From positions 1 through 43,537 of IMG/VR virus record IMGVR_UViG_3300042673_000425: a stretch of DNA of 43,537 nt; one strand, written 5' to 3'. Source of the stretch: a virus. A model generated the notes under the pieces. It was not told where the DNA came from and searched no databases. It worked only from the letters and a program-made list of their open reading frames with translations. Positions 4,406-43,500 of the stretch are shown here, in pieces. Each line of letters opens with the position of its first letter. The first letter of the stretch is position 1. The translations under genes and the position numbers were made by a program.

Positions 4406-6257
4406 TGGTACAACTGCAGAAAAATCCGGTTCATTAGCATTCGGAGAACCCTATGTAAATACTACATTAGGAACATTACAAATTGGTGGAACAACCGGTG
4501 ATATCACATTAAGCACATCAGGTACAGGAAGTACCGGAAATTTTGGAGCAATTTCAGGTTCTGGTTTAGACATTACTGGAAATGCAAATGTTGCAGGTAA
4601 TTTAACATTAGGTGGACAATTAACAATAGGTGATAACACATCTGATACTGTAAATGTAGTAGCATCTTTAAGTTCTTCACTTATTCCTCAAACAACAAAT
4701 GTATTTGACTTAGGTTCTGCAAGTAAAATTTGGAGAGACCTTTATATATCAACGGGTTCAATTAAATTTGTAAATCCAGCCGGAACAGTTGTATCGACAC
4801 TATCTGTTAATGCAGATGGTTCTCAAACTTTTCCAAGTGATTTAATCGTTAATGGATTAACGGTAGGTAAAGGATTAAATTCGGGATCTACTAATACTGC
4901 AGTAGGGGTAAGTGCATTAGGTGCAAATACGACAGGTACTACTAATACTGCCATTGGACACACTGCCTTACAAAATAATACAACAGGTGTTTCTAATACT
5001 GCAATTGGTGCATGGACTTTAACTGCTATTACAACGGCAAACGCTAATACTGCCGTTGGTTGGGGTGCTTTAAGATATAATACTACTGCTAATTCAAATA
5101 CTGCAGTAGGTTCAGGTGCCATGCAAAATAATACAACAGGTAATGGTAATACTGCAGTAGGAAATGCATCTCTAGCAACAAATACAACAGGTGTTAATAA
5201 TACGGCTTTAGGTACAAATGCTTTGGCTGATAATGTTGGTAATTATAATGTTGGTGTAGGTGCACTTGCATTAAGACTAAATGTAAGTGGTAGTAGTAAT
5301 ATAGCTATTGGACATTCTGCTTTAGAATGGCATACCACAGGTCAAGGCAATACTGTAATTGGTGATACTGCAGGAAATTTAATTACTACGGGTTCTTACA
5401 ATACAATAATTGGTAAATATACAGGTGAAGAATCTTTATCTAATAATATAGTTTTAGCAGATGGACAAGGTAATATTAAATATCGTTGGGATGGAACTAA
5501 TAATAATATTTATGGTAATGTAAATGTAAGTGGTTCTATTACTGGACAAATATTATCAACTAATGGTATAGTTTCGGGTTCATCACAAGTAATTGGTATA
5601 TTAAGTTCTCTAAACACATATACTGGTTCAAATGACACAACTAATACTACTCAAAATAGTAGATTAGACCAATTATCAACTGCAAGTGGAAGTGCTATTA
5701 CAAGATTGACAGCATTGGAAGTTGAAACGGCTAATTTGGAAACATTTACATCTTCTATTAATACAACAATTAAGACAAGATTAAATGCAGAAACGGTTGT
5801 AAGTGGTTCATCACAAATAACACTATCATCAACGACTGGATATGGTTCAGTATTAAACCAAGCAGTATTAACAACATCATCACCAACCTTCGCAGGTTTG
5901 ACAATTAATGGAGCAATTACGGCAACGGGTGATATTACGGCATTCTTTACTTCGGATAAAAGACATAAGAATAACATTCAAACTATTCCAAACGCTTTAG
6001 AAAAAGTAACTAAATTGAATGGTGTAACTTGGGAATGGAATGATGATGTCAATGAAGTAACAAAATCAACTCCAAAAACAGGTTTGATTGCACAAGAAGT
6101 ACAAGAAGTTTTACCAGAAGTGGTGAAAGAAAGAGAAGATGGTTTTTTAGCATTAGACTATTCAAAAATGATGGGTTTAATGGTAGAAGCAATCAAAGAA
6201 CAACAAAAACAAATTGATTCTTTATTAATAAAGATAAATCAACTGGAAAACAAATAG
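4386..6257 (+). CDS. Tail fibre with YadA-like head repeats and S74 chaperone domain
   Basis: The 623-residue protein has three parts. An N-terminal attachment region (MGLKFRRGTTAEKSG) is shared with the next fibre. A long array around residues 165-350 is made of about 14-residue repeats with NTAxG cores (SNTAIG, NTAVG, NNTTG), the left-handed beta-roll pattern of YadA/trimeric-autotransporter heads. After a Ser/Thr-rich stalk, an S74 chaperone begins near residue 520, with the Ser523-Asp pair, Lys528 and GLIAQEVQEVLPEVV, and ends in a coiled coil. The expected role is a trimeric receptor-binding fibre that matures by self-cleavage before Ser523. Paralogous to the following gene. Confidence 0.9.
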   Translation: MGLKFRRGTTAEKSGSLAFGEPYVNTTLGTLQIGGTTGDITLSTSGTGSTGNFGAISGSGLDITGNANVAGNLTLGGQLTIGDNTSDTVNVVASLSSSLIPQTTNVFDLGSASKIWRDLYISTGSIKFVNPAGTVVSTLSVNADGSQTFPSDLIVNGLTVGKGLNSGSTNTAVGVSALGANTTGTTNTAIGHTALQNNTTGVSNTAIGAWTLTAITTANANTAVGWGALRYNTTANSNTAVGSGAMQNNTTGNGNTAVGNASLATNTTGVNNTALGTNALADNVGNYNVGVGALALRLNVSGSSNIAIGHSALEWHTTGQGNTVIGDTAGNLITTGSYNTIIGKYTGEESLSNNIVLADGQGNIKYRWDGTNNNIYGNVNVSGSITGQILSTNGIVSGSSQVIGILSSLNTYTGSNDTTNTTQNSRLDQLSTASGSAITRLTALEVETANLETFTSSINTTIKTRLNAETVVSGSSQITLSSTTGYGSVLNQAVLTTSSPTFAGLTINGAITATGDITAFFTSDKRHKNNIQTIPNALEKVTKLNGVTWEWNDDVNEVTKSTPKTGLIAQEVQEVLPEVVKEREDGFLALDYSKMMGLMVEAIKEQQKQIDSLLIKINQLENK

Positions 6258-9453: not shown

Positions 9454-11169
9454 ATGCCAAGGACAAACTTATCATTAGGAAATTTATTTAGAGCCGTTAG
9501 TGGTTCTGCAAGAAGTGGACAAGTATCATTAGGTGGATTATCAGGAAACACAAATGATAGTTCTTTAATTGGTTTTGCAACCGATTCGATTACAGTTACA
9601 CCACCTACATTTACATATATAGTAGAGAGTACAACTGAAAATGCACAATTTACATTTAACTCAACGGGTTCTTTATTTTATTCAAAAGTACAACAACAAT
9701 TGAATAACTATACTTGTTCTTTTAATAATGCAAATTTTACAACCGGTACAAGAACATCAGCTACAGGTCCATCAATTTTCCCAGTAACTCCAGCATCAAT
9801 CGCTGCATCCAATTATTCGGAAGCATCTGCAACATTAACTATGGCATATGCAGATGGATATAATTTAGCTGCAACAAACTACGGAACTGCATCAACAAAA
9901 ATATTATATGCAGTAGACGTTTATAATACAATTAACGAACCTGACTTTTGTTTATTATTTGGTACACAAATCGAATTAGCAAATGGTACAATGGTAAATG
10001 TTGAAGATTTGAATGTTGGAGACCAAATTAAATCATGGGTACCTGCAGGTCTACCGGATGAAAATTTAGACCCAGAAAGTGACCAAGTTGAATGGAGATT
10101 TTATTATTCGGATACTTTAGAAGGTTCTGCACAAAATGTAACAGTTACCGATTTGACTTTCAACTTTGCAGAAGGATATTTCTCACTTAATAATGGTTTA
10201 ATTAAAGCAACCGAAACTCACCCATTATATGTTTGGGATAATGAAATTGGTAAATATAAGTTTAAGAATGTAGGTGAAATTTTACCTGGAGATAAATTAG
10301 TAATGCAAGATGAAACGGAAGTTGAAGTTACTAATATCGAAATCGTAACAGATGATGTTGAGATTGTAACTGTGAATGTGGAAAATGCCGATGTATATAT
10401 TTCAAATGGTTTAATTTCACATAACAAAGGAACAACCACACAACCTTCTATACCTGCAAGTGGATTAAGATTATATGTTGACCCATCAAAAGCATCATCA
10501 ACGGCAGGTACTGCAACGGCAGACTGGTTAGACCTTTCGGGTTATAACACAGGTGTAAGACCTGCAGGTGTTGCAAACGCAGCAAGTATTACAGGTGGTA
10601 ACCCATCATATAATGCAGGCGCAAGTAGAAAAGAAAAATATTGGGCAGCTAATGGTACAACTCAATTCTGGTATAAAGATACTACTACAAATATCAATGG
10701 TGGTATTTCTCAATTTAATACTAATACCGGTACAATTCATATGTGGGTAAGACCTACAACAACATTGGGTACAAGTACAAGACACATTTTTGACTACGCA
10801 GGTTTTTATGGTTTAGCAATTGAATCATCTGATAGTTCTACTTTAAATAGAGTAAAATTCTATGGTAGTACATTAGGTAATAGTGCACAATTAACGACTT
10901 CATTATCAACAAACGTTTGGTATATGATATCAGCAACATTCCAACCATCAGGAACTGTAACAGTTTATGTAGACGGGACATCGGTAGGAACATTTACGGC
11001 AGCAGCATTCACTGCACCATCATCTACTAACTTCTTAACAATTGGTAGTAATAGTGCAAGAACAACATTTTGGAATGGACAAATAGGACCAGTATTGTTC
11101 TATAATGTATTACAAAATTCGACAAAAGTAACAGAAACATATAATTATTTCTCACCAACATACAAATAA
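9454..11169 (+). CDS. Tail protein with internal Hint (intein-like) domain and LamG-like lectin module
   Basis: The 571-residue protein has three parts. Residues 1-165 form a Gly/Ser-rich N-terminus (MPRTNLSLGNLFRAVSGSAR), probably for tail attachment. Residues 166-324 are a Hint domain: Cys166 opens block A (CLLFGTQIELANG, VEDLNVGDQI), TxxH is at T253-H256 (TETHPLYVW), and VYISNGLISHN ends in His323-Asn324. Residues ~335-571 resemble a LamG/concanavalin-like sugar-binding fold (LRLYVDPSKAS, TIHMWVRP, TVTVYVDGTSVG). The residue after the terminal Asn is Lys325, not Cys/Ser/Thr, so ordinary intein splicing is unlikely; this fits A-type bacterial intein-like domains, which can cleave. No homing endonuclease is present. 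Confidence 0.8.
   Translation: MPRTNLSLGNLFRAVSGSARSGQVSLGGLSGNTNDSSLIGFATDSITVTPPTFTYIVESTTENAQFTFNSTGSLFYSKVQQQLNNYTCSFNNANFTTGTRTSATGPSIFPVTPASIAASNYSEASATLTMAYADGYNLAATNYGTASTKILYAVDVYNTINEPDFCLLFGTQIELANGTMVNVEDLNVGDQIKSWVPAGLPDENLDPESDQVEWRFYYSDTLEGSAQNVTVTDLTFNFAEGYFSLNNGLIKATETHPLYVWDNEIGKYKFKNVGEILPGDKLVMQDETEVEVTNIEIVTDDVEIVTVNVENADVYISNGLISHNKGTTTQPSIPASGLRLYVDPSKASSTAGTATADWLDLSGYNTGVRPAGVANAASITGGNPSYNAGASRKEKYWAANGTTQFWYKDTTTNINGGISQFNTNTGTIHMWVRPTTTLGTSTRHIFDYAGFYGLAIESSDSSTLNRVKFYGSTLGNSAQLTTSLSTNVWYMISATFQPSGTVTVYVDGTSVGTFTAAAFTAPSSTNFLTIGSNSARTTFWNGQIGPVLFYNVLQNSTKVTETYNYFSPTYK
9949..10425 (+). other. Hint / bacterial-intein-like domain coding segment
   Basis: This segment encodes Cys166 to Asn324 (159 residues). 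It has the N-terminal Cys, block-B TxxH and C-terminal His-Asn of a mini-intein, but Lys at the +1 position. It lies between an attachment region and a lectin-like module. Confidence 0.8.
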
Positions 11170-34980: not shown

Positions 34981-36837
34981 ATGGACATTTCAAACAAAAT
35001 CTTATCAGAAATTACGGTATATATGAAGTACGCAAAGTACAGACCGGAATTACAAAGGAGAGAAACATGGGAAGAGTTGGTTACGAGAAATATGGAAATG
35101 CATATTAAAAAGTATCCACAATTAGAACAAGAGATTAGAGATAATTACAAATTCGTATACGATAAAAAGGTATTACCATCAATGCGTTCAATGCAATTCG
35201 CGGGTAAACCAATTGAAATGTCACCAAATAGAATATACAATTGTGCATTTGCACCGATTGATGACTGGAGAGTATTTTCTGAAATTATGTTCTTACTTTT
35301 AGGTGGAACAGGTGTAGGATATTCAGTACAAAAACATCATGTAGATGCATTACCTGAAATTAGAAAACCAAATGCAGACAAAACTCGTAGATTCCTTATT
35401 GGAGATTCTATCGAAGGATGGGCCGATTCAATTTCAGTATTAGTAAAATCATATTTCTTTGGTGGAAGTAAACCTCAATTTGATTTTAGAGATATTAGAC
35501 AAAAGGGTGCAAGATTGATTACATCTGGTGGTAAAGCTCCAGGACCTCAACCACTTAAAGAATGTCTAATCAAATTAGAAGGTATTTTAGATGCTAAAAA
35601 GAATGGTGATAAATTATCTCCAATCGAAGTACATGATATGGTTTGTCATATTGCAGATGCAGTATTGGCAGGTGGTATTAGAAGAGCTGCATTAATTTCT
35701 TTGTTCTCTGCAAATGACGAACAAATGATTAGTTGTAAGAGTGGTGCATGGTGGGAAACAAATCCACAAAGAGGTAGAGCAAATAACTCAGCAGTATTAA
35801 TGAGACATAAAATTGACAAACCTTATTTTATGGACTTATGGCAAAGAATCGAAGCAAGTGGAGCGGGTGAACCTGGTATCTACTTATCAAATGATAAAGA
35901 TTGGGGAACTAATCCTTGTTGTGAGATTGCTTTAAGACCTTTCCAATTCTGTAACTTATGTGAAGTTAATGTAAGTGATGTAGTTGACCAGGATGATTTA
36001 AATGCAAGAGTAAAAGCAGCATCATTCATTGGAACATTACAAGCAGGTTATACCGATTTCCATTATCTTCGTCCAATTTGGCAAAGAACAACTGAAAAGG
36101 ACGCACTTATTGGTGTATCTATGACGGGTATCGGAAGTGGTGCAGTTTTGAAAATGAACATGAAAGAAGCAGCAAAAGTTGTTAAAGAAGAAAACAAAAG
36201 AATTGCAGATGTATTGGGTATCAATCATTCAGCAAGAACTACAACTGTTAAACCTGCAGGAACAACATCATTGACATTAGGAACAAGTAGTGGTATTCAC
36301 GCTTGGCACAATGACTATTATATTCGTAGAGTAAGAGTAGGTAAGAATGAGGCAATTTATTCTCACTTATTATTAAATCATCCGGAATTAGTAGAAGATG
36401 AATATTTTAGACCACATGATACTGCGGTAATCGGTATTCCACAAAAAGCACCTCAAACTGCAATCTTTAGAACCGAATCTCCAATTCAATTATTAGAGAG
36501 AGTTAAGAAAGTGCATGGTGAGTGGATTAAACCAGGACATAGAACAGGAAACAACACACACAATGTATCTGCAACAGTTTCAATTAGAGAACATGAGTGG
36601 GATGCAGTTGGTGAGTGGATGTGGGAAAATAAAGAATATTACAACGGACTTTCAGTATTACCTTACGATGGTGGAACTTACATTCAGGCACCATTTGAAG
36701 ATTGTACAAAAGAAAAGTACGAAGAATTAATGAAAACACTTACGGAAGTAGACCTAAGTAAAGTTATTGAAATCGAAGATAATACGGATTTATCAGGTGA
36801 GGTAGCTTGTGCGGGAGGTGCTTGTGAAGTTAAATAA
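34981..36837 (+). CDS. nrdJ: Adenosylcobalamin-dependent (class II) ribonucleotide reductase, monomeric type
   Basis: The 618-residue protein matches the monomeric B12-dependent ribonucleoside-triphosphate reductase (Lactobacillus leichmannii type). NPCCEIALRPFQFCNLCEVN carries Asn311, thiyl-radical Cys313, Glu315 and redox Cys324; the 11-residue spacing Cys313-Cys324 equals that of the Lactobacillus enzyme. Partner Cys88 is in YNCAF, and the C-terminal swinging pair is Cys610/Cys615. KPAGTTSLTLGTSSGIHAWH is the conserved substrate-site loop. The enzyme converts NTPs to dNTPs for phage replication without oxygen or a second subunit but needs cobalamin. It is somewhat shorter than typical (~740 residues). 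The nearby thioredoxin could re-reduce it. Confidence 0.9.
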   Translation: MDISNKILSEITVYMKYAKYRPELQRRETWEELVTRNMEMHIKKYPQLEQEIRDNYKFVYDKKVLPSMRSMQFAGKPIEMSPNRIYNCAFAPIDDWRVFSEIMFLLLGGTGVGYSVQKHHVDALPEIRKPNADKTRRFLIGDSIEGWADSISVLVKSYFFGGSKPQFDFRDIRQKGARLITSGGKAPGPQPLKECLIKLEGILDAKKNGDKLSPIEVHDMVCHIADAVLAGGIRRAALISLFSANDEQMISCKSGAWWETNPQRGRANNSAVLMRHKIDKPYFMDLWQRIEASGAGEPGIYLSNDKDWGTNPCCEIALRPFQFCNLCEVNVSDVVDQDDLNARVKAASFIGTLQAGYTDFHYLRPIWQRTTEKDALIGVSMTGIGSGAVLKMNMKEAAKVVKEENKRIADVLGINHSARTTTVKPAGTTSLTLGTSSGIHAWHNDYYIRRVRVGKNEAIYSHLLLNHPELVEDEYFRPHDTAVIGIPQKAPQTAIFRTESPIQLLERVKKVHGEWIKPGHRTGNNTHNVSATVSIREHEWDAVGEWMWENKEYYNGLSVLPYDGGTYIQAPFEDCTKEKYEELMKTLTEVDLSKVIEIEDNTDLSGEVACAGGACEVK

Positions 36838-37961: not shown

Positions 37962-37993
37962 TTTGGTATTGTGAGAAAAATTAGTTATATTAG
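37962..37993 (+). promoter_or_regulatory. Bacteroidota-type sigma-A promoter
   Basis: TTTG at 37962-37965, 20-bp spacer, TATATTAG at 37986-37993. The ATG at 37998 is 4 nt downstream, so the mRNA would be leaderless or nearly so. Confidence 0.65.
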
Positions 37994-37997
37994 ACAT

Positions 37998-38201
37998 ATG
38001 AAATTAGTAGGTGAATTACATCCAATGCATAAACTGACAGAAGAGCAGATATTGCAGATTAGGGAACTATACAAAATAGGTCATAGAAATATTAATGTAA
38101 TAGCTAGGAACTATGGGGTTTCACCTGCTAACATCAAAAAAATAGTTACAAACGAAACGTGGAAACACATGGTGAAGTGGCCATATGAAAGTACAAGATA
38201 A
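37998..38201 (+). CDS. Small helix-turn-helix protein
   Basis: From the ATG at 37998 the product is 67 residues. HKLTEEQILQIRELYKIGHR followed by NVIARNYGVSPANIKKIVTN and ETWKHM is a homeodomain-like HTH resembling the DNA-binding tails of phage homing endonucleases and small regulators. A GTG at 37971 would give a longer protein, but the promoter lies between the two codons, so the ATG is preferred. Its end overlaps the Mom-like gene by 17 bp. It might regulate the DNA-modification genes that follow. Confidence 0.65.
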   Translation: MKLVGELHPMHKLTEEQILQIRELYKIGHRNINVIARNYGVSPANIKKIVTNETWKHMVKWPYESTR

Positions 38202-38952
38202 ACAATATTGTGACACTTCCAAGTTTAGTGTAAGGTTAATAGAAAAGTCGGTTGCAAAGAATATAATAGTGAAACATCATTATTCTAAACAATGGACAAA
38301 AGTTAGTTACGCATTGGGTTTATTCTACGAAAACGACACCGAACATAAATTCTTTGGTGGAGTAAATCAGGAACTAATTGGAGTGATTTGTTATGGTGAC
38401 CCAATTGGTAGACATTGTGGGGCATCTATAAGTGAAACATTAGATAGAACAGAAGTGATGGAGTTAGTAAGACTTTTTGTATTTGACGGATATGGTTGTA
38501 ACATTGAAAGTTGGTTTGTCGGAAAGTCTTTTGAATGGTTAAAAGAAAACGCAAAACAAATAAGAGCATTGATATCATACTCCGACCCTGTACAAGGACA
38601 TAAAGGACAAATATATCAGGCAACAAATTGGTTATATCAAGGAACAAGTATTAGACCTAACGACACATGGTCTTTTCGTTTTGAAGAAGGTGGTAAATGG
38701 ATACATGGTAGAACTATGGCACCTTATTGGGGAACAACCTCACCTTTCAAATTACAAGAACTTATTGATAAACCATTTTGGGTAAAAAGAGAGCCGAAGA
38801 AACATAGGTATATCTACATTTTGGGCAAGGATAAAAAAGATAAAAAGGAATTATTGAAAAATATAAAACATCCCCTATATTCATATCCAAAAACATTAGA
38901 AAAATATACTGAAGAAATATTAAAATTAGAACCAATTGAAAGAGTTAAATAA
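38185..38952 (+). CDS. Mom-like DNA-modification protein (GNAT-type), copy 1
   Basis: The 255-residue protein resembles Mom-family proteins, named for the phage Mu enzyme that modifies adenine N6. It has MELVRLFVFDGYGCNIESWF at 92-111, then ALISYSDPVQGHKGQIYQATNW at 128-149, the family's SYxDP-GHxGxIYxAxNW signature. HRYIYILGKDKKDKKELLKN and the YPK end are shared with the next gene. Mu Mom has a GNAT-like fold and shields DNA from host restriction. It overlaps the HTH gene by 17 bp, and the second Mom-like gene begins within its last 17 bp. Substrate and the exact base product are unknown. Confidence 0.75.
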   Translation: MKVQDKQYCDTSKFSVRLIEKSVAKNIIVKHHYSKQWTKVSYALGLFYENDTEHKFFGGVNQELIGVICYGDPIGRHCGASISETLDRTEVMELVRLFVFDGYGCNIESWFVGKSFEWLKENAKQIRALISYSDPVQGHKGQIYQATNWLYQGTSIRPNDTWSFRFEEGGKWIHGRTMAPYWGTTSPFKLQELIDKPFWVKREPKKHRYIYILGKDKKDKKELLKNIKHPLYSYPKTLEKYTEEILKLEPIERVK

Positions 38953-39739
38953 GTTATATTGTGATACGAGTAGAGTATCGGTTAGAGAAATAAGTAGTTC
39001 AGTTGCAAAAGAAATTATAGTTAAGAAACACTATACACATGCATGGACTGCATGTAGATATTCATTAGGAATATTTTACAAAACTGATGAGTCAAATGCA
39101 TTGGGTGATAGTGATAAACTAATTGGATGTTTAGTGTATGGATTCCCAGTAGGTGCAAGAGCTGCAAATTCAGTTTCAGATTCAATTACAAAGGATAACA
39201 TTTTAGAATTAACAAGATTGTATTGTGATGATGGATATGGTTCTAATATTGAATCGTATGCATTAGGACAATCGTTTAAGTGGTTTAGAGAGAATGATAA
39301 GGCAATCAAAATTCTAATATCATACGCAGATAACGGACAAGAACATTTAGGAGGTATTTATCAGGCAACCAATTGGATTTATCAAGGAATGAATACTGAT
39401 ATCGCATTGATGCCAAATTATGGAATATCTTTATCAAATGACCCCTATAAATGGATTCATAGTAGAACTGTGTTTTCAATGTGGGGTAGCGGTAATTTGG
39501 AACATCTTAGGAGAGAAATAGGTAAGCAAGGATATAAACAATTTTGGAGAAGGGAAGAACCACCAAAACATAGATACATACAGGTATTGGGTGCAGATAA
39601 AAAAGAAAAAAGAGAATTACTTAAAACTCTTAAACACGACCCAAAGTCGTATCCAAAAGATACAAGAGATTTCAACAAAGAAATCGAACACTACACTACA
39701 ATTGCACCTGAAACAGAACTTGCAAGTAAGTTTTGGTAA
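38936..39739 (+). CDS. Mom-like DNA-modification protein (GNAT-type), copy 2
   Basis: The 267-residue protein is a tandem paralogue of the preceding one. The start is the TTG at 38936: there is no in-frame ATG until deep in the protein, and with TTG the shared YCDTS motif falls at the same residue (8) in both copies. It has ELTRLYCDDGYGSNIESYAL at 91-110 and LISYADNGQEHLGGIYQATNW at 127-147, keeping SYAD more exactly than copy 1. The C-terminus HRYIQVLGADKKEKRELLK again matches. The two copies differ enough to have separate targets or to form a heteromer. Expression is probably coupled to copy 1 through the 17-bp overlap. Confidence 0.75.
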   Translation: MKELNKLYCDTSRVSVREISSSVAKEIIVKKHYTHAWTACRYSLGIFYKTDESNALGDSDKLIGCLVYGFPVGARAANSVSDSITKDNILELTRLYCDDGYGSNIESYALGQSFKWFRENDKAIKILISYADNGQEHLGGIYQATNWIYQGMNTDIALMPNYGISLSNDPYKWIHSRTVFSMWGSGNLEHLRREIGKQGYKQFWRREEPPKHRYIQVLGADKKEKRELLKTLKHDPKSYPKDTRDFNKEIEHYTTIAPETELASKFW

Positions 39740-39763
39740 TTTGGATAATTTTTAGTATATTAC
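39732..39763 (+). promoter_or_regulatory. Bacteroidota-type sigma-A promoter
   Basis: TTTG at 39732-39735 (overlapping the end of Mom-like copy 2), 20-bp spacer, TATATTAC at 39756-39763. The ATG at 39768 is 4 nt downstream, again implying a leaderless mRNA. Confidence 0.65.
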
Positions 39764-39767
39764 ATAT

Positions 39768-40943
39768 ATGAACAAATTTTGGGAAACAGGCAACGAGCCA
39801 AAGAAAACAGACACATTTGACTTTGAAAAAAACAAAAGAGAGTTACTTGAAAACTTAGATTATCTAATGTCTATGTCGGTACAAGAACAAACCTTATATA
39901 AGAAGTGGGTTGAGTGGAATCAGGATTTATATGGTAGTATGAAATTACTTCCTATATTACACCAACAATATGATAAGATTTGGGAACCTGCAGACATATT
40001 TGATTACCACAAAACTGTAAAGGAAATACAAGAATTAGAACCATTTGTGGAATTAGTAGAAGAGGGTGATGCAACTCGTTGGACACATATGAGAAAGTTG
40101 ATTTCCTCAATGGAATTTAGTGCAAATCCAGGCCGTAATGTTAAAGCATTTGTAAAAGATAGAAAAACAAATAAAATATTGGGTGTTATTTCATTGGGTT
40201 CGGATATTACAAGTTTAGGTGTTAGGGATAATTTTATAGGTTGGAAAAAAGAAGATAAATTTCAAAATGGTAAATTAAATAACACAACGATTGGAACATC
40301 GATTATCGCAACACAACCATTGGGATATAATTTCTTAGGTGGTAAATTGGTTGCAGCATTAACTACATCTCCTGTTTTTAGAAAACAATGGAAAGAAAAG
40401 TATAATAATATATTAATTGCAGTTGGAACGACTGCGTTATATGGTGCAAGTTCTCAATATAATGCAATTCCACATTTTAAAACATTGGGTGAAAGTAAAG
40501 GTTTGATTAACATTAAACCTGATGATAAATACTATGATATTTGGCATCAATATGTTAAAAATTTAGACCCTGTGTGGTATGATAAGGCGATAAACTCCAC
40601 CGGCCCAAAACAAAATGTGTTAATGAGAGTTTTCAAAGAAATCGATGTTAAGGCTTCTCTTTATAATCATGGTTTTAAAAGAGGTGTATATTTTGCACAA
40701 ATGTATGAGAATGGTAATGATTTTCTTTGTTCTAAAATTACAGAAGAAGAATTAATTATGAAACCAAAATTTGAACAAGGTGATGAATATACAATCAAAT
40801 GGTGGAAAGACAAAGCAATAAAAAGATATACAACACTACATACCGATGGCAGATTAAAATCAGAAAAGTTATTTTATGCCGATATTATTGGTATGACATG
40901 GGAACAATGTAAAGAAAAATATTTAAAAGAAGTGGGGAGATAA
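39768..40943 (+). CDS. DruA/DUF4338-like protein
   Basis: The 391-residue protein has a helical N-terminus (~1-105) and a central region resembling DUF4338, the domain of DruA from the Druantia defence system. MRKLISSMEFSANPGRNVKA is followed by ILGVISLGSDITSLGVRDNF and IGWKK; the RDxFIGW core, then TSIIATQPLGYNFLGGKLVAAL and ALYGASSQYNAIPHFKTLGE, matches the family's order. The biochemical role of this domain is not settled. Placed after two Mom-like genes and before the DNA polymerase, a role in DNA modification or in countering host defence is plausible. It has its own host-type promoter and ends 1 nt before the polymerase start. Confidence 0.6.
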   Translation: MNKFWETGNEPKKTDTFDFEKNKRELLENLDYLMSMSVQEQTLYKKWVEWNQDLYGSMKLLPILHQQYDKIWEPADIFDYHKTVKEIQELEPFVELVEEGDATRWTHMRKLISSMEFSANPGRNVKAFVKDRKTNKILGVISLGSDITSLGVRDNFIGWKKEDKFQNGKLNNTTIGTSIIATQPLGYNFLGGKLVAALTTSPVFRKQWKEKYNNILIAVGTTALYGASSQYNAIPHFKTLGESKGLINIKPDDKYYDIWHQYVKNLDPVWYDKAINSTGPKQNVLMRVFKEIDVKASLYNHGFKRGVYFAQMYENGNDFLCSKITEEELIMKPKFEQGDEYTIKWWKDKAIKRYTTLHTDGRLKSEKLFYADIIGMTWEQCKEKYLKEVGR

Positions 40944-40944
40944 T

Positions 40945-43500
40945 ATGTATCAAAACATTTATTACGAGAGACAAAAAAATTTAATGCATCTTTGGGATGA
41001 CAAAAACGGGTATCAAACAATGCCATACCGAAAGTATGCATATAAGAAAGACCCATACGGACAACATCTCTCAATGAATGGTGAGAAACTAAGTCGTATT
41101 TCAAAGTGGGAGAAAGATGAAAGTGATGACTTATTTGAAAGTGATGTTCCAGAAACTACAAGAGTGTTGGTAGATATTTACGATAGTGACATCCCATCAA
41201 CAGGCCATAGAGTATTGACTTTTGACATTGAGGTTGAAATGATTACCGGACTACCAAACACACGAGAAGCACAAAACGAATTGACAGCAATTGCTGCACA
41301 TGATGGAGCAACAAAACTATATGATGTATTCGTATTAGATAAAGACAAAACAGTAAAAAATAATGCCAAAAACTTTAGCAAAGATGGGAGAGAGGTTACT
41401 CTTCACATTTTCGATAACGAGAAAAATCTCTTACTTGCTTTCCTTAATTATTACGAGGAAATTGACCCAACTATTCTTACAGGGTGGAATATAGATTTCT
41501 TTGATATTCCTTACCTTTATAATCGTATTAAAAATGTATGTGGTGAAAGTCATGCAAAAAGACTTTCTAGAATAGGACAATGTTTCTATTCACCTTATAG
41601 AGAGAAGTGGACATTCGGTGGTGTATCTATTTTGGATTACATCAGTTTATATAAACAATATAATTTTGGTTTAGAAAGTTCATATACACTCAATCATATT
41701 GCAACAAAAGAATTGGGTAGAGGTAAGGTGGAGTATGAAGGAAGTTTGGATGATTTGTTCGTAAATGATTTGGAAAAATTCATTGAGTATAATATTGTCG
41801 ATGTGGACTTAGTGGTATCAATGGATGAGAAATTAAAGTTTATTGATTTATGTAGGGCTATATGTCACGCTGGATATGTTCCTTACGAAGATTATATGTT
41901 TTCGTCAAAATGGTTAGAGGGTGCTTGTTTAGCATATCTTAAAACTAAAAATATGGTTGCAACAAACAAACCGGCGGATAGGAGAGAAAGGATGCAGGCT
42001 TTGAGAGATAACGACCAAGAAAAGTTCATTGGAGCATATGTAAAAGAACCCATCGTTGGAAAGTATGATTGGATATATGATTTGGATTTAACATCACTAT
42101 ACCCATCAATCATTATGACACTAAATATCTCACCTGAAACAAAGATTGGTAAGATTTCAAATTGGGATGCAGAACAATATATCAAAGGTGAGGAAATCAC
42201 TTATAAGTTAAAGGGTAAGGATGGTGATGAATATGAATACAACCGTCAGGAATTAGCAGATGTTATCAAAGATAGTAATTTGGGTGTAGCAGCTAATGGA
42301 GTTCTTTATATGCAAGATAAACCAGGTTTGATTGCGGATATCCTTAACACATGGTTTAACAAAAGAGTTGAATATCGTAAATTAGAAAAGAAATATGGTG
42401 AGGAAAAAAATACCGAATTATATGAGTTCTATGGTAAGAGACAACACGTTCAGAAAATTCTTTTGAACTCAATGTATGGTGTATTAGGCCTACCGGCATT
42501 CCGTTTCTATGATGTAGATAACGCAGAGGCGGTAACCCTAACAGGACAAGTCGTAATTAAAAAGACGGCTGAAATGGCCAATAGAAAATATTGGAAAGAA
42601 TTAGGAACAACCGATGACTATAATGTTTATATTGATACCGACTCAATTTATATGATGGCAGAACCTTTGGTAAAACATAGATACCCAGAATATAAGACAT
42701 TTGATGAAAAGAGGATGGCAGTTGAGGTAGACAATATTGCAACCGAAACACAAACATTCTTAAACTCATTCTACGACTTATTGGCAGAGAGATTTTTCTT
42801 TATTCCAAAAGACAAACATAGATTTGAGATTAAAAAAGAATATATCAGTAAAGCAGGATTTTGGGTAGCTAAGAAACGATATGCACAATGGATGATTTTG
42901 AAAAACGGAATACCCTGTGATAAGTTAGATGTGAAAGGATTGGATGTAGTTAGAAGTTCATTCCCCAAAGCATTCCAGAAGTTTATGTCTACAATGTTAA
43001 AAGATATTTTAATGGGTAAAGACCATGAATATATAGATGATACCTTATTGGCATTTAAGAAAAGTTTACCAACACTTCCTGTAAATACAATCGCAAAAGG
43101 TGGAGCATTAAAAGAATTGAGTAAGTATGATAATGGTAGTTGGAAAACAGGTGATGCAGTAGCAAACTTTGAGAAAGGAACACCTGCACACGTTAAAGCC
43201 GGAATAACATACAATAGATTATTAAAATTCTTCAATTGTCCATATAAGCATGAACCAATTAGAGATGGTGATAAAGTAAAGTGGGTATATCTTAAAGACA
43301 ACCCATTAGGATTAGAAACAGTTGCATTCAAAGATTATAATGACCCAAAAGAAATTATGGATTTTGTGGAAACCTATGTGGATAGAAACAAAATATTTGA
43401 AGCAGAATTGGAAAACAAATTAGATGACTTTTATAACGCATTGAAGTGGGATAAAGTCACCGCAGATACAAAAACAGCAAAAAAGTTTTTCGCATTTTAA
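40945..43500 (+). CDS. gp43: Family-B DNA polymerase (T4 gp43-like)
   Basis: The 851-residue protein is a complete replicative polymerase. Exonuclease motifs: TFDIEVEM (Asp94/Glu96), GWNIDFFDIPYLYNR (180-194) and EYNIVDVDLV (281-290). Polymerase motifs: A DLTSLYPSII (381-390), B KILLNSMYG (504-512) and C YIDTDSIY (562-569), with both catalytic Asp present. Length is slightly under T4 gp43 (898 residues). It should copy the phage genome with proofreading, working with gp32 and gp41 from this window. It starts 1 nt after the DruA-like gene, so modification and replication genes are probably co-transcribed. Confidence 0.96.
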   Translation: MYQNIYYERQKNLMHLWDDKNGYQTMPYRKYAYKKDPYGQHLSMNGEKLSRISKWEKDESDDLFESDVPETTRVLVDIYDSDIPSTGHRVLTFDIEVEMITGLPNTREAQNELTAIAAHDGATKLYDVFVLDKDKTVKNNAKNFSKDGREVTLHIFDNEKNLLLAFLNYYEEIDPTILTGWNIDFFDIPYLYNRIKNVCGESHAKRLSRIGQCFYSPYREKWTFGGVSILDYISLYKQYNFGLESSYTLNHIATKELGRGKVEYEGSLDDLFVNDLEKFIEYNIVDVDLVVSMDEKLKFIDLCRAICHAGYVPYEDYMFSSKWLEGACLAYLKTKNMVATNKPADRRERMQALRDNDQEKFIGAYVKEPIVGKYDWIYDLDLTSLYPSIIMTLNISPETKIGKISNWDAEQYIKGEEITYKLKGKDGDEYEYNRQELADVIKDSNLGVAANGVLYMQDKPGLIADILNTWFNKRVEYRKLEKKYGEEKNTELYEFYGKRQHVQKILLNSMYGVLGLPAFRFYDVDNAEAVTLTGQVVIKKTAEMANRKYWKELGTTDDYNVYIDTDSIYMMAEPLVKHRYPEYKTFDEKRMAVEVDNIATETQTFLNSFYDLLAERFFFIPKDKHRFEIKKEYISKAGFWVAKKRYAQWMILKNGIPCDKLDVKGLDVVRSSFPKAFQKFMSTMLKDILMGKDHEYIDDTLLAFKKSLPTLPVNTIAKGGALKELSKYDNGSWKTGDAVANFEKGTPAHVKAGITYNRLLKFFNCPYKHEPIRDGDKVKWVYLKDNPLGLETVAFKDYNDPKEIMDFVETYVDRNKIFEAELENKLDDFYNALKWDKVTADTKTAKKFFAF

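What the first reader, a model, noticed from the sequence alone, without database searches (positions are those of the whole stretch)
38185..40943. Tandem Mom-like pair plus DruA-like gene: a candidate DNA-modification or counter-defence cassette
Seen: two adjacent paralogues share the SYxD...GxIYQATNW signature of Mom-family proteins, overlap by 17 bp, and are followed by a protein with the RDxFIGW pattern of DUF4338/DruA. A small HTH gene lies directly upstream and the family-B polymerase directly downstream. Known: Mu Mom modifies adenine N6 and protects DNA from restriction; DruA belongs to the Druantia defence system. Inference: the phage may hypermodify its own DNA with a two-subunit or two-step Mom system, with the DruA-like protein as an added modifier or a captured defence component. 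I know of no described system with this gene set.
Basis: partly seen in the sequence, partly recalled or inferred. Interest (0 to 1): 0.85.

Follow-up and report, generated by a model that had tools for sequence, protein, structure and literature searches.

The report
Paired Mom enzymes beside phage replisome
An uncultured T4-like phage carries two old, diverged and apparently active copies of the enzyme phage Mu uses to disguise its DNA, plus a third enzyme of the same broad fold, next to its DNA polymerase; this arrangement is widespread in wild phages but is not in the cultured phages searched, and no chemistry has been shown.

Summary
38185-38952 and 38936-39739 encode two Mom-family proteins (Pfam E 4e-43 and 1e-42; 17 bp overlap). 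39768-40943 encodes a DruA/DUF4338 protein (E 4e-21). A small HTH gene lies upstream and a family-B polymerase downstream. Mom1's predicted structure best matches the crystal structure of Mu Mom, and both copies keep the serine whose mutation inactivates Mu Mom. Both form old, separate clades under purifying selection. In 61 relatives with an intact HTH-to-DruA interval, 46 have both, 14 only Mom2, one neither, none only Mom1. So Mom2 looks like the core enzyme and Mom1 an active accessory.

The three-gene unit is only partly supported. The DruA-like protein is a GNAT that sits by replisome genes in Pelagibacter phages and cyanophages lacking Mom, lies 19-20 kb from the Mom pair in two relatives, and has its own promoter-like motif. 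It is not a Druantia system. In relatives the gap between Mom2 and polymerase is a hotspot for nucleases and ParB-like proteins.

Best reading: two Mom enzymes with divided targets modify replicated phage DNA. The modification is unproven and not all-protective: GATC is almost absent (2 found, 119 expected). New variant of a known kind.

The parts
37962..37992 (+). promoter-like motif TTTGGTATTGTGAGAAAAATTAGTTATATTA upstream of the HTH gene (probable start ATG at 37998)
   Evidence: Similar motif before genes at 866 and 39768; 6 regex hits in the window against 0.66 expected in mononucleotide shuffles. Inference only.
37971..38201 (+). small HTH protein (67-76 aa), likely DNA- or RNA-binding regulator, overlapping mom1 by 17 bp
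   Evidence: Pfam HTH_7 3e-5, HNH-endonuclease-type HTH in PHROGs; present in about 70 relatives, dN/dS about 0.15
38185..38952 (+). Mom1, Mom-family enzyme with conserved catalytic-type residues H32 Y33 R96 D101 N106 E108 S109 S131 D134 Y144 N148 H174
   Evidence: Pfam Mom 4e-43; AF2 pLDDT 86.8; Foldseek top hit PDB 8bv8, E 1.7e-12; S109 aligns with Mu S124
38936..39739 (+). Mom2, second Mom-family enzyme, same catalytic-type residues (S107), TTG start inside the 3' end of mom1
   Evidence: Pfam Mom 1e-42; old clade separate from Mom1; dN/dS about 0.08, as strict as polymerase
39732..39762 (+). promoter-like motif TTTGGTAATTTGGATAATTTTTAGTATATTA at the end of mom2, before DruA
   Evidence: Related motif found upstream of DruA in 36 of 95 relatives; the same pattern was found before none of the seven other genes tested, though the HTH motif lies partly outside the stretch scanned. 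Inference only.
39768..40943 (+). DruA-like (DUF4338) GNAT-fold protein; helical N-terminus, GNAT core about 92-245, C-terminal extension
   Evidence: Pfam DruA 3.9e-21, PADLOC DruA1 7.6e-24; AF2 pLDDT 85.6; PDB hits mostly GNAT acetyltransferases, best 3.3e-4
40945..43500 (+). family-B DNA polymerase (gp43-like), context
   Evidence: Pfam DNA_pol_B 6.6e-35; PHROG 262 5e-181

Best explanation
HTH-mom1-mom2 is an operon for two catalytically competent Mom-type enzymes that modify adenines in newly replicated phage DNA so that host restriction enzymes fail at many sites. Mom2 is the core enzyme. Mom1 is an old, diverged accessory with the same active site but a different target context, so the pair covers more sites than one enzyme. 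The DruA-like gene is a separate, replisome-linked GNAT acyltransferase that heads a transcription unit with the polymerase; its acceptor (DNA or protein) is unknown. Shown: homology, fold of Mom1 and DruA-like, conserved catalytic residues, purifying selection, gene order and co-occurrence. Inferred: activity, adenine as target, division of labour by target context, co-transcription and protection.
For: Family matches. Mom1 model resembles Mu Mom 8bv8, whose PDB title calls S124A an inactive mutant; the equivalent serine is S109 in Mom1, S107 in Mom2, and is invariant in 44 sequences. 56 positions are conserved in both clades, including all the catalytic-type residues, and only 11 are clade-specific: same chemistry, different fine specificity. 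Old separate clades, 100/99 and 100/96 support. Purifying selection, dN/dS 0.16 and 0.08. 46 both, 14 Mom2 only, 0 Mom1 only. Mom genes recur next to polymerase in other contigs. No N6/N4 methyltransferase above cut-off in 14 genomes, so Mom is the leading DNA-modification candidate there. DruA without Mom near replication or recombination genes in cultured phages.
Against: No modification has been measured. Mom identity rests on a family with essentially one characterised enzyme; relatives could use another acyl group or target. The co-occurrence counts are not phylogenetically independent. GATC is nearly absent (2 against 119 expected), so any modification does not protect all sites, although GATC would not be expected to be a Mom target.
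Confidence: 0.5

Rival explanations
1. Two-step or heteromeric Mom system: Mom2 installs the first group and Mom1 either elaborates it or forms a mixed complex with Mom2, so that Mom1 has no function without Mom2.
For: Mom1 is never seen without Mom2, Mom2 is seen without Mom1; 17 bp overlap suggesting translational coupling; 47% identity and similar length.
Against: Mom1 keeps the complete catalytic set, so it is not a dead subunit. The slot before Mom2 can be empty or hold a short DruA instead. The same counts arise if Mom1 was simply gained later or lost often.
Confidence: 0.22
2. The Moms are the self-protecting half of a phage-borne restriction or exclusion system; nucleases carried at the same locus cut unmodified host or rival-phage DNA.
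For: In relatives the Mom2-DruA-pol gaps hold a GmrSD_N+HNH protein (L150, 7e-8 and 4e-11), ParB_N-type proteins, HNH and GIY-YIG-like nucleases, a helicase-like protein and an N6/N4 methyltransferase. Mom-nuclease fusions are described in jumbo phages (PMC7824862).
Against: The window has no such nuclease at the locus, nor do most relatives; several inserts look like homing endonucleases; PF03235 in only 1 of 14 genomes.
Confidence: 0.18
3. One or more of the three GNAT-fold proteins modify host proteins or RNA for takeover rather than phage DNA; most likely for the DruA-like protein.
For: Phage GNATs that acetylate host RNA polymerase are known (PMC7824862); the DruA-like model's nearest solved folds are ordinary acetyltransferases.
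Against: Mom1 matches Mu Mom far above other GNATs and Mom2 shares its family and residues. Persistent linkage of DruA-like genes to clamp, clamp-loader or polymerase genes suggests a replication role.
Confidence: 0.12
4. The DruA-like gene is a captured Druantia defence component used against other phages.
For: Pfam and PADLOC DruA matches; cyanophage DruA-like proteins resemble Druantia DruA structurally (PMC12774648).
Against: No DruE-type MZB/DUF1998 domain in the window or 13 relatives. The gene is conserved across marine and freshwater T4-like phages near replication genes, and the long form lacks the YLADNW motif kept by the short DruA form.
Confidence: 0.04

Closest known systems
Phage Mu Mom (PDB 8bv8; Pfam PF25680)
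   Same: Family, fold, catalytic serine and invariant H/Y/R/D/N/E/S/D/Y/N/H set; small regulator gene overlapping the mom start
   Different: Two diverged copies in tandem; upstream gene is an HTH without cysteines, not the zinc-finger Com; embedded in a T4-like replication region; product not measured
Single pol-adjacent or helicase-adjacent Mom genes in other uncultured T4-like contigs (L223-L258)
   Same: Mom next to family-B polymerase or between helicase and RNR; some also in multiple copies
   Different: The ordered HTH-Mom1-Mom2-DruA-pol arrangement belongs to this phage group
DruA-like proteins of Pelagibacter phages HTVC008M and Mosig and of cyanomyophages
   Same: Same DruA family (about 34% identity to the Pelagibacter phage proteins), near replication or recombination genes
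   Different: The four such genomes searched have no Mom gene
Druantia type I DruA
   Same: DUF4338 GNAT domain
   Different: No DruE-type helicase domain; phage replication context
Jumbo-phage Mom-nuclease fusions (PMC7824862)
   Same: Mom with nucleases nearby
   Different: Here nucleases are separate, optional neighbours in relatives and absent from the window's locus
Cyanophage S-B43 CmoA-CmoX-CmoY 5cxmC-glycine system (PMC12783734)
   Same: Multi-enzyme DNA hypermodification in a cyanophage
   Different: Different chemistry and enzyme families; not homologous

Membership tests
Mom family (PF25680) | Profile match above curated cut-off over the whole domain | tested here: met
   147.8 and 146.3 bits against 27.1, profile 2-202 of 202
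Mom family (PF25680) | Mom fold | tested here: met
   Mom1 model: best PDB hit 8bv8, E 1.7e-12, TM 0.71 by target; Mom2 not modelled
Mom family (PF25680) | Catalytic serine and invariant residues | tested here: met
   S109/S107 align with Mu S124; 17 invariant columns in 44 sequences
Mom family (PF25680) | Modifies adenine N6 in DNA and blocks restriction | not testable with these tools
   Needs mass spectrometry or digestion assay
Mu com-mom regulatory arrangement | Zinc-finger Com encoded by a gene overlapping mom | tested here: not met
   Overlapping gene is an HTH without cysteines
DruA / DUF4338 domain family | Profile match above cut-off | tested here: met
   75.9 bits against 27; profile 36-295 of 297
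DruA / DUF4338 domain family | GNAT fold | tested here: met
   PDB hits mostly acetyltransferases, best 3.3e-4; DUF4338 called a GNAT in PMC10853773
DruA / DUF4338 domain family | NGAVYLADNW-type motif seen in the short DruA form (not a curated requirement of the family) | tested here: not met
   The long form has LYGASSQYN instead; the short form in relatives keeps YLADNW
Druantia defence system | DruE helicase with MZB/DUF1998 domain | tested here: not met
   PF09369 in 0 of 14 genomes; controls ring in 8 of 14
Restriction-modification or exclusion system | Cognate nuclease at the locus | tested here: not met
   None between HTH and polymerase in the window; optional in relatives

The most novel reading that the evidence does not exclude
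A widespread group of uncultured T4-like phages builds its DNA protection from a modular set of GNAT-fold enzymes (Mom1, Mom2, a third Mom, short and long DruA) at replisome loci. Mom1 and Mom2 act in sequence or with complementary sequence specificity to make a modification pattern not seen in Mu, and DruA-like proteins are a second kind of DNA acyltransferase, which would also explain DruA in bacterial defence.
Probability: 0.15. Interest if true: 0.85.

Novelty: new variant of a known kind. Interest (0 to 1): 0.55.

Why it matters
Mom has essentially one characterised example. Two ancient, differentiated and apparently active copies in abundant environmental phages give a natural experiment on how Mom picks its sites and whether Mom enzymes can work in series. 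The linkage of DruA-like GNATs to replication genes in several T4-like lineages also offers a testable route to the unknown biochemistry of DUF4338.

Tried and rejected
Druantia capture: rejected on the missing DruE-type domain and on conservation near replisome genes. DruA and Mom as close sister families: hhalign of the long DruA set against Mom gave high scores but a nonsensical alignment, so it was not used; short DruA against Mom gave a weak but colinear match (probability 23, P 9e-4), so only a shared GNAT fold is claimed. Recent tandem duplication: rejected by the tree. Degenerate second copy: rejected by intact catalytic residues and low dN/dS. Bacterial origin or host carrier of the pair: the genome scan returned only distant Mom-like genes plus one close match in a MAG contig (TMED198), probably phage DNA. 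Mom presence as the cause of GATC loss: not clean, because Mel-JY01 without Mom also lacks GATC. tRNA and Rfam scans of the window were empty. Papers on the Mu Mom mechanism (Karambelkar 2020) and on structure 8bv8 were not found in the library.

Full report
Observation. The window is part of an uncultured T4-like phage contig (IMG/VR, 43,537 bp, G000). The local order is helicase, RNR, PhoH, thioredoxin, HTH, Mom1, Mom2, DruA-like, family-B polymerase, all on the + strand. Mom1 (38185-38952) and Mom2 (38936-39739) match Pfam Mom over its full length, and the third protein (39768-40943) matches Pfam and PADLOC DruA. HTH/mom1 and mom1/mom2 each overlap by 17 bp, which suggests coupled translation. 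The finding is confirmed at its stated coordinates.

Are both Moms enzymes? Mom1 folds with good confidence (pLDDT 86.8). Its best solved match is 8bv8, Mu Mom inactive mutant S124A (E 1.7e-12; next hits are generic GNATs near 3e-4). The HMM alignment places the mutated residue in the N-x-E-S motif, which is S109 in Mom1 and S107 in Mom2. Seventeen columns, including H32, Y33, R96, D101, N106, E108, S109, S131, D134, Y144, N148 and H174, are invariant over 44 sequences. Comparing 27 Mom1 with 31 Mom2 sequences, 56 positions are conserved in both and only 11 are clade-specific, none of them among the invariant residues. Same chemistry with altered recognition is an inference from this.

History. 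On a 112-row tree Mom1 (28 rows, 100/99) and Mom2 (30 rows, 100/96) are separate clades; Mom2 groups with single Mom genes, many of them beside polymerase genes, in other T4-like contigs. The pair is therefore old, not a recent duplication. Median dN/dS is 0.16 (Mom1), 0.08 (Mom2), 0.17 (DruA-like) and 0.08 (polymerase). In close relatives Mom1 is less diverged at synonymous sites (mostly 0.13-0.22) than most flanking genes (mostly 0.2-0.6), which points to recent recombination of Mom1.

Co-occurrence. Among 61 contigs complete from HTH to DruA, 46 have Mom1 and Mom2, 14 have Mom2 only, one has neither and none has Mom1 only. These contigs are related, so the counts are descriptive. The slot between HTH and Mom2 can hold Mom1, a short DruA, both, or nothing. 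Some relatives add a third Mom between helicase and RNR (Pfam 8e-36, L007), upstream of the helicase (L021) or after the polymerase (L091). No record in 50,697 cultured-phage entries has two Mom places, though 301 have one.

The DruA-like gene. It is a GNAT-fold protein with relatives in Pelagibacter phages HTVC008M and Mosig and in cyanomyophages, where it lies near clamp, clamp-loader or recombination genes; four such genomes have no Mom. In G011 it follows the HTH gene with no Mom present, and in G005 and G012 it is 19-20 kb from the Mom pair. A motif TTTGG...TTTTTAGTATATTA precedes it in 36 of 95 relatives, and the same pattern was found before none of the other genes tested, with the caveat that the HTH motif lies partly outside the stretch scanned. 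It is thus better seen as the head of a DruA-polymerase unit than as a third Mom-cassette gene. It is not a Druantia system. DruA-like proteins in Synechococcus phages are already reported (PMC12774648), and DUF4338 has been called a GNAT (PMC10853773).

Neighbouring hotspot. Between Mom2 and polymerase, relatives carry a GmrSD_N+HNH protein, ParB-like proteins, an N6/N4 methyltransferase, HNH and GIY-YIG-like nucleases, an AAA/helicase-like protein, large proteins without matches, and a 443 aa protein of unknown family found in 33 contigs. This fits a conflict-related locus. The window itself has none of these.

Is all DNA protected? GATC occurs twice against 119 expected in the window, and at 0.00-0.02 of expectation in seven genomes with both Moms (the window included); 0.07 with Mom2 only; 0.19 in a Mom-less relative; but 0/41 in Mom-less Mel-JY01 and 1.06 in a Flavobacterium phage. 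GATC avoidance is therefore a group trait, not clearly tied to Mom. It suggests that any modification is not a blanket shield. From general knowledge (not tested here) Mu Mom needs C or G after the adenine, so GATC would be out of reach; PMC8281217 notes that Mu Mom modification does not interfere with DpnI at GATC.

Mechanism, with basis. Shown: two intact Mom-family proteins, the fold of Mom1, shared catalytic-type residues, constraint and conserved order. Inferred: expression from the HTH promoter motif with coupled translation; action on replicated phage DNA; adenine as target; Mom2 as core and Mom1 as accessory with a second target context; a separate, unknown substrate for the DruA-like GNAT. 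Confidence in the full statement is 0.5.

Host. Not determined. PhoH is nearest to a Flavobacterium phage, Mom to a Polaribacter phage, and one relative (L066) carries a porin and a phosphate-binding gene that look Bacteroidota-like by eye, so a Bacteroidota host is a guess. The nearest cultured polymerase is that of Microcystis phage Mel-JY01, at 49% identity.

Novelty. Mom, DruA-like proteins in phages and Mom-nuclease association are all known. The conserved, anciently diverged Mom pair with asymmetric dependence, in a replisome-linked set of GNAT-fold enzymes, was not found in the papers or cultured-phage records available here.

Noticed in passing
window 1-43537 (GATC at 4885 and 23147 only): GATC almost eliminated (2 against 119 expected); same in relatives with both Moms; CATG and CTAG also low. 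Weaker in a Mom-less relative, but Mom-less Mel-JY01 lacks it too.
   Followed up: partly
L007 4673-5272; L010, L022, L124, L132, L135, L136; L021 2517-3329; L091 6645-7256: Third Mom-family genes elsewhere in related phages, between helicase and RNR, upstream of the helicase or after polymerase.
   Followed up: partly
L031 7270-8001; L012, L020, L075, L123, L125; L063 11496-12194: Short DruA form (about 243 aa) keeping YLADNW, mostly between HTH and Mom1 or Mom2.
   Followed up: partly
L150 10234-11793; L072 2844-4367; L177 1190-2389; L142 3484-4395; L123 8551-9942; L133 3051-4655; L067, L095, L156: Mom2-DruA-polymerase gaps in relatives are a hotspot for GmrSD/HNH, ParB-like, methyltransferase, GIY-YIG-like, helicase-like and unknown large proteins.
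   Followed up: partly
L142 5704-7035 and 32 other contigs: A 443 aa protein without Pfam match, usually between DruA and polymerase; glycosyltransferase-like by eye only.
   Followed up: no
window 38185-38952: Mom1 less diverged at synonymous sites than most flanking genes among close relatives: recent recombination or sweep.
   Followed up: partly
window 37962-37992, 39732-39762, 827-857: Repeated promoter-like motif TTTGG-N-TATATTA just before start codons; may be a phage-class promoter.
   Followed up: partly
BFVD A0A3G4ZXG3 (Faunusvirus), A0A5K0UAJ3 (Yasminevirus), A0A3G4ZRA1 (Dasosvirus): Proteins of giant-virus entries structurally match the phage DruA-like protein, E 3e-19 to 5e-10, 19-21% identity.
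   Followed up: no
window 34981-36837; L057 4990-6780; L150 3001-4056: The RNR slot between helicase and PhoH holds different RNR genes in different relatives: one 618 aa RNR here, a two-gene NrdA/NrdB-like set in others (class by eye).
   Followed up: no
window 9454-11169: Structural protein with an apparent Hint/intein-like segment (CLLFGTQIELANGTMVNVEDLNVGDQI), by eye.
   Followed up: no
HTVC008M 86143-87255 and 99793-100128 (W02): This Pelagibacter phage has two DruA-like genes.
   Followed up: no
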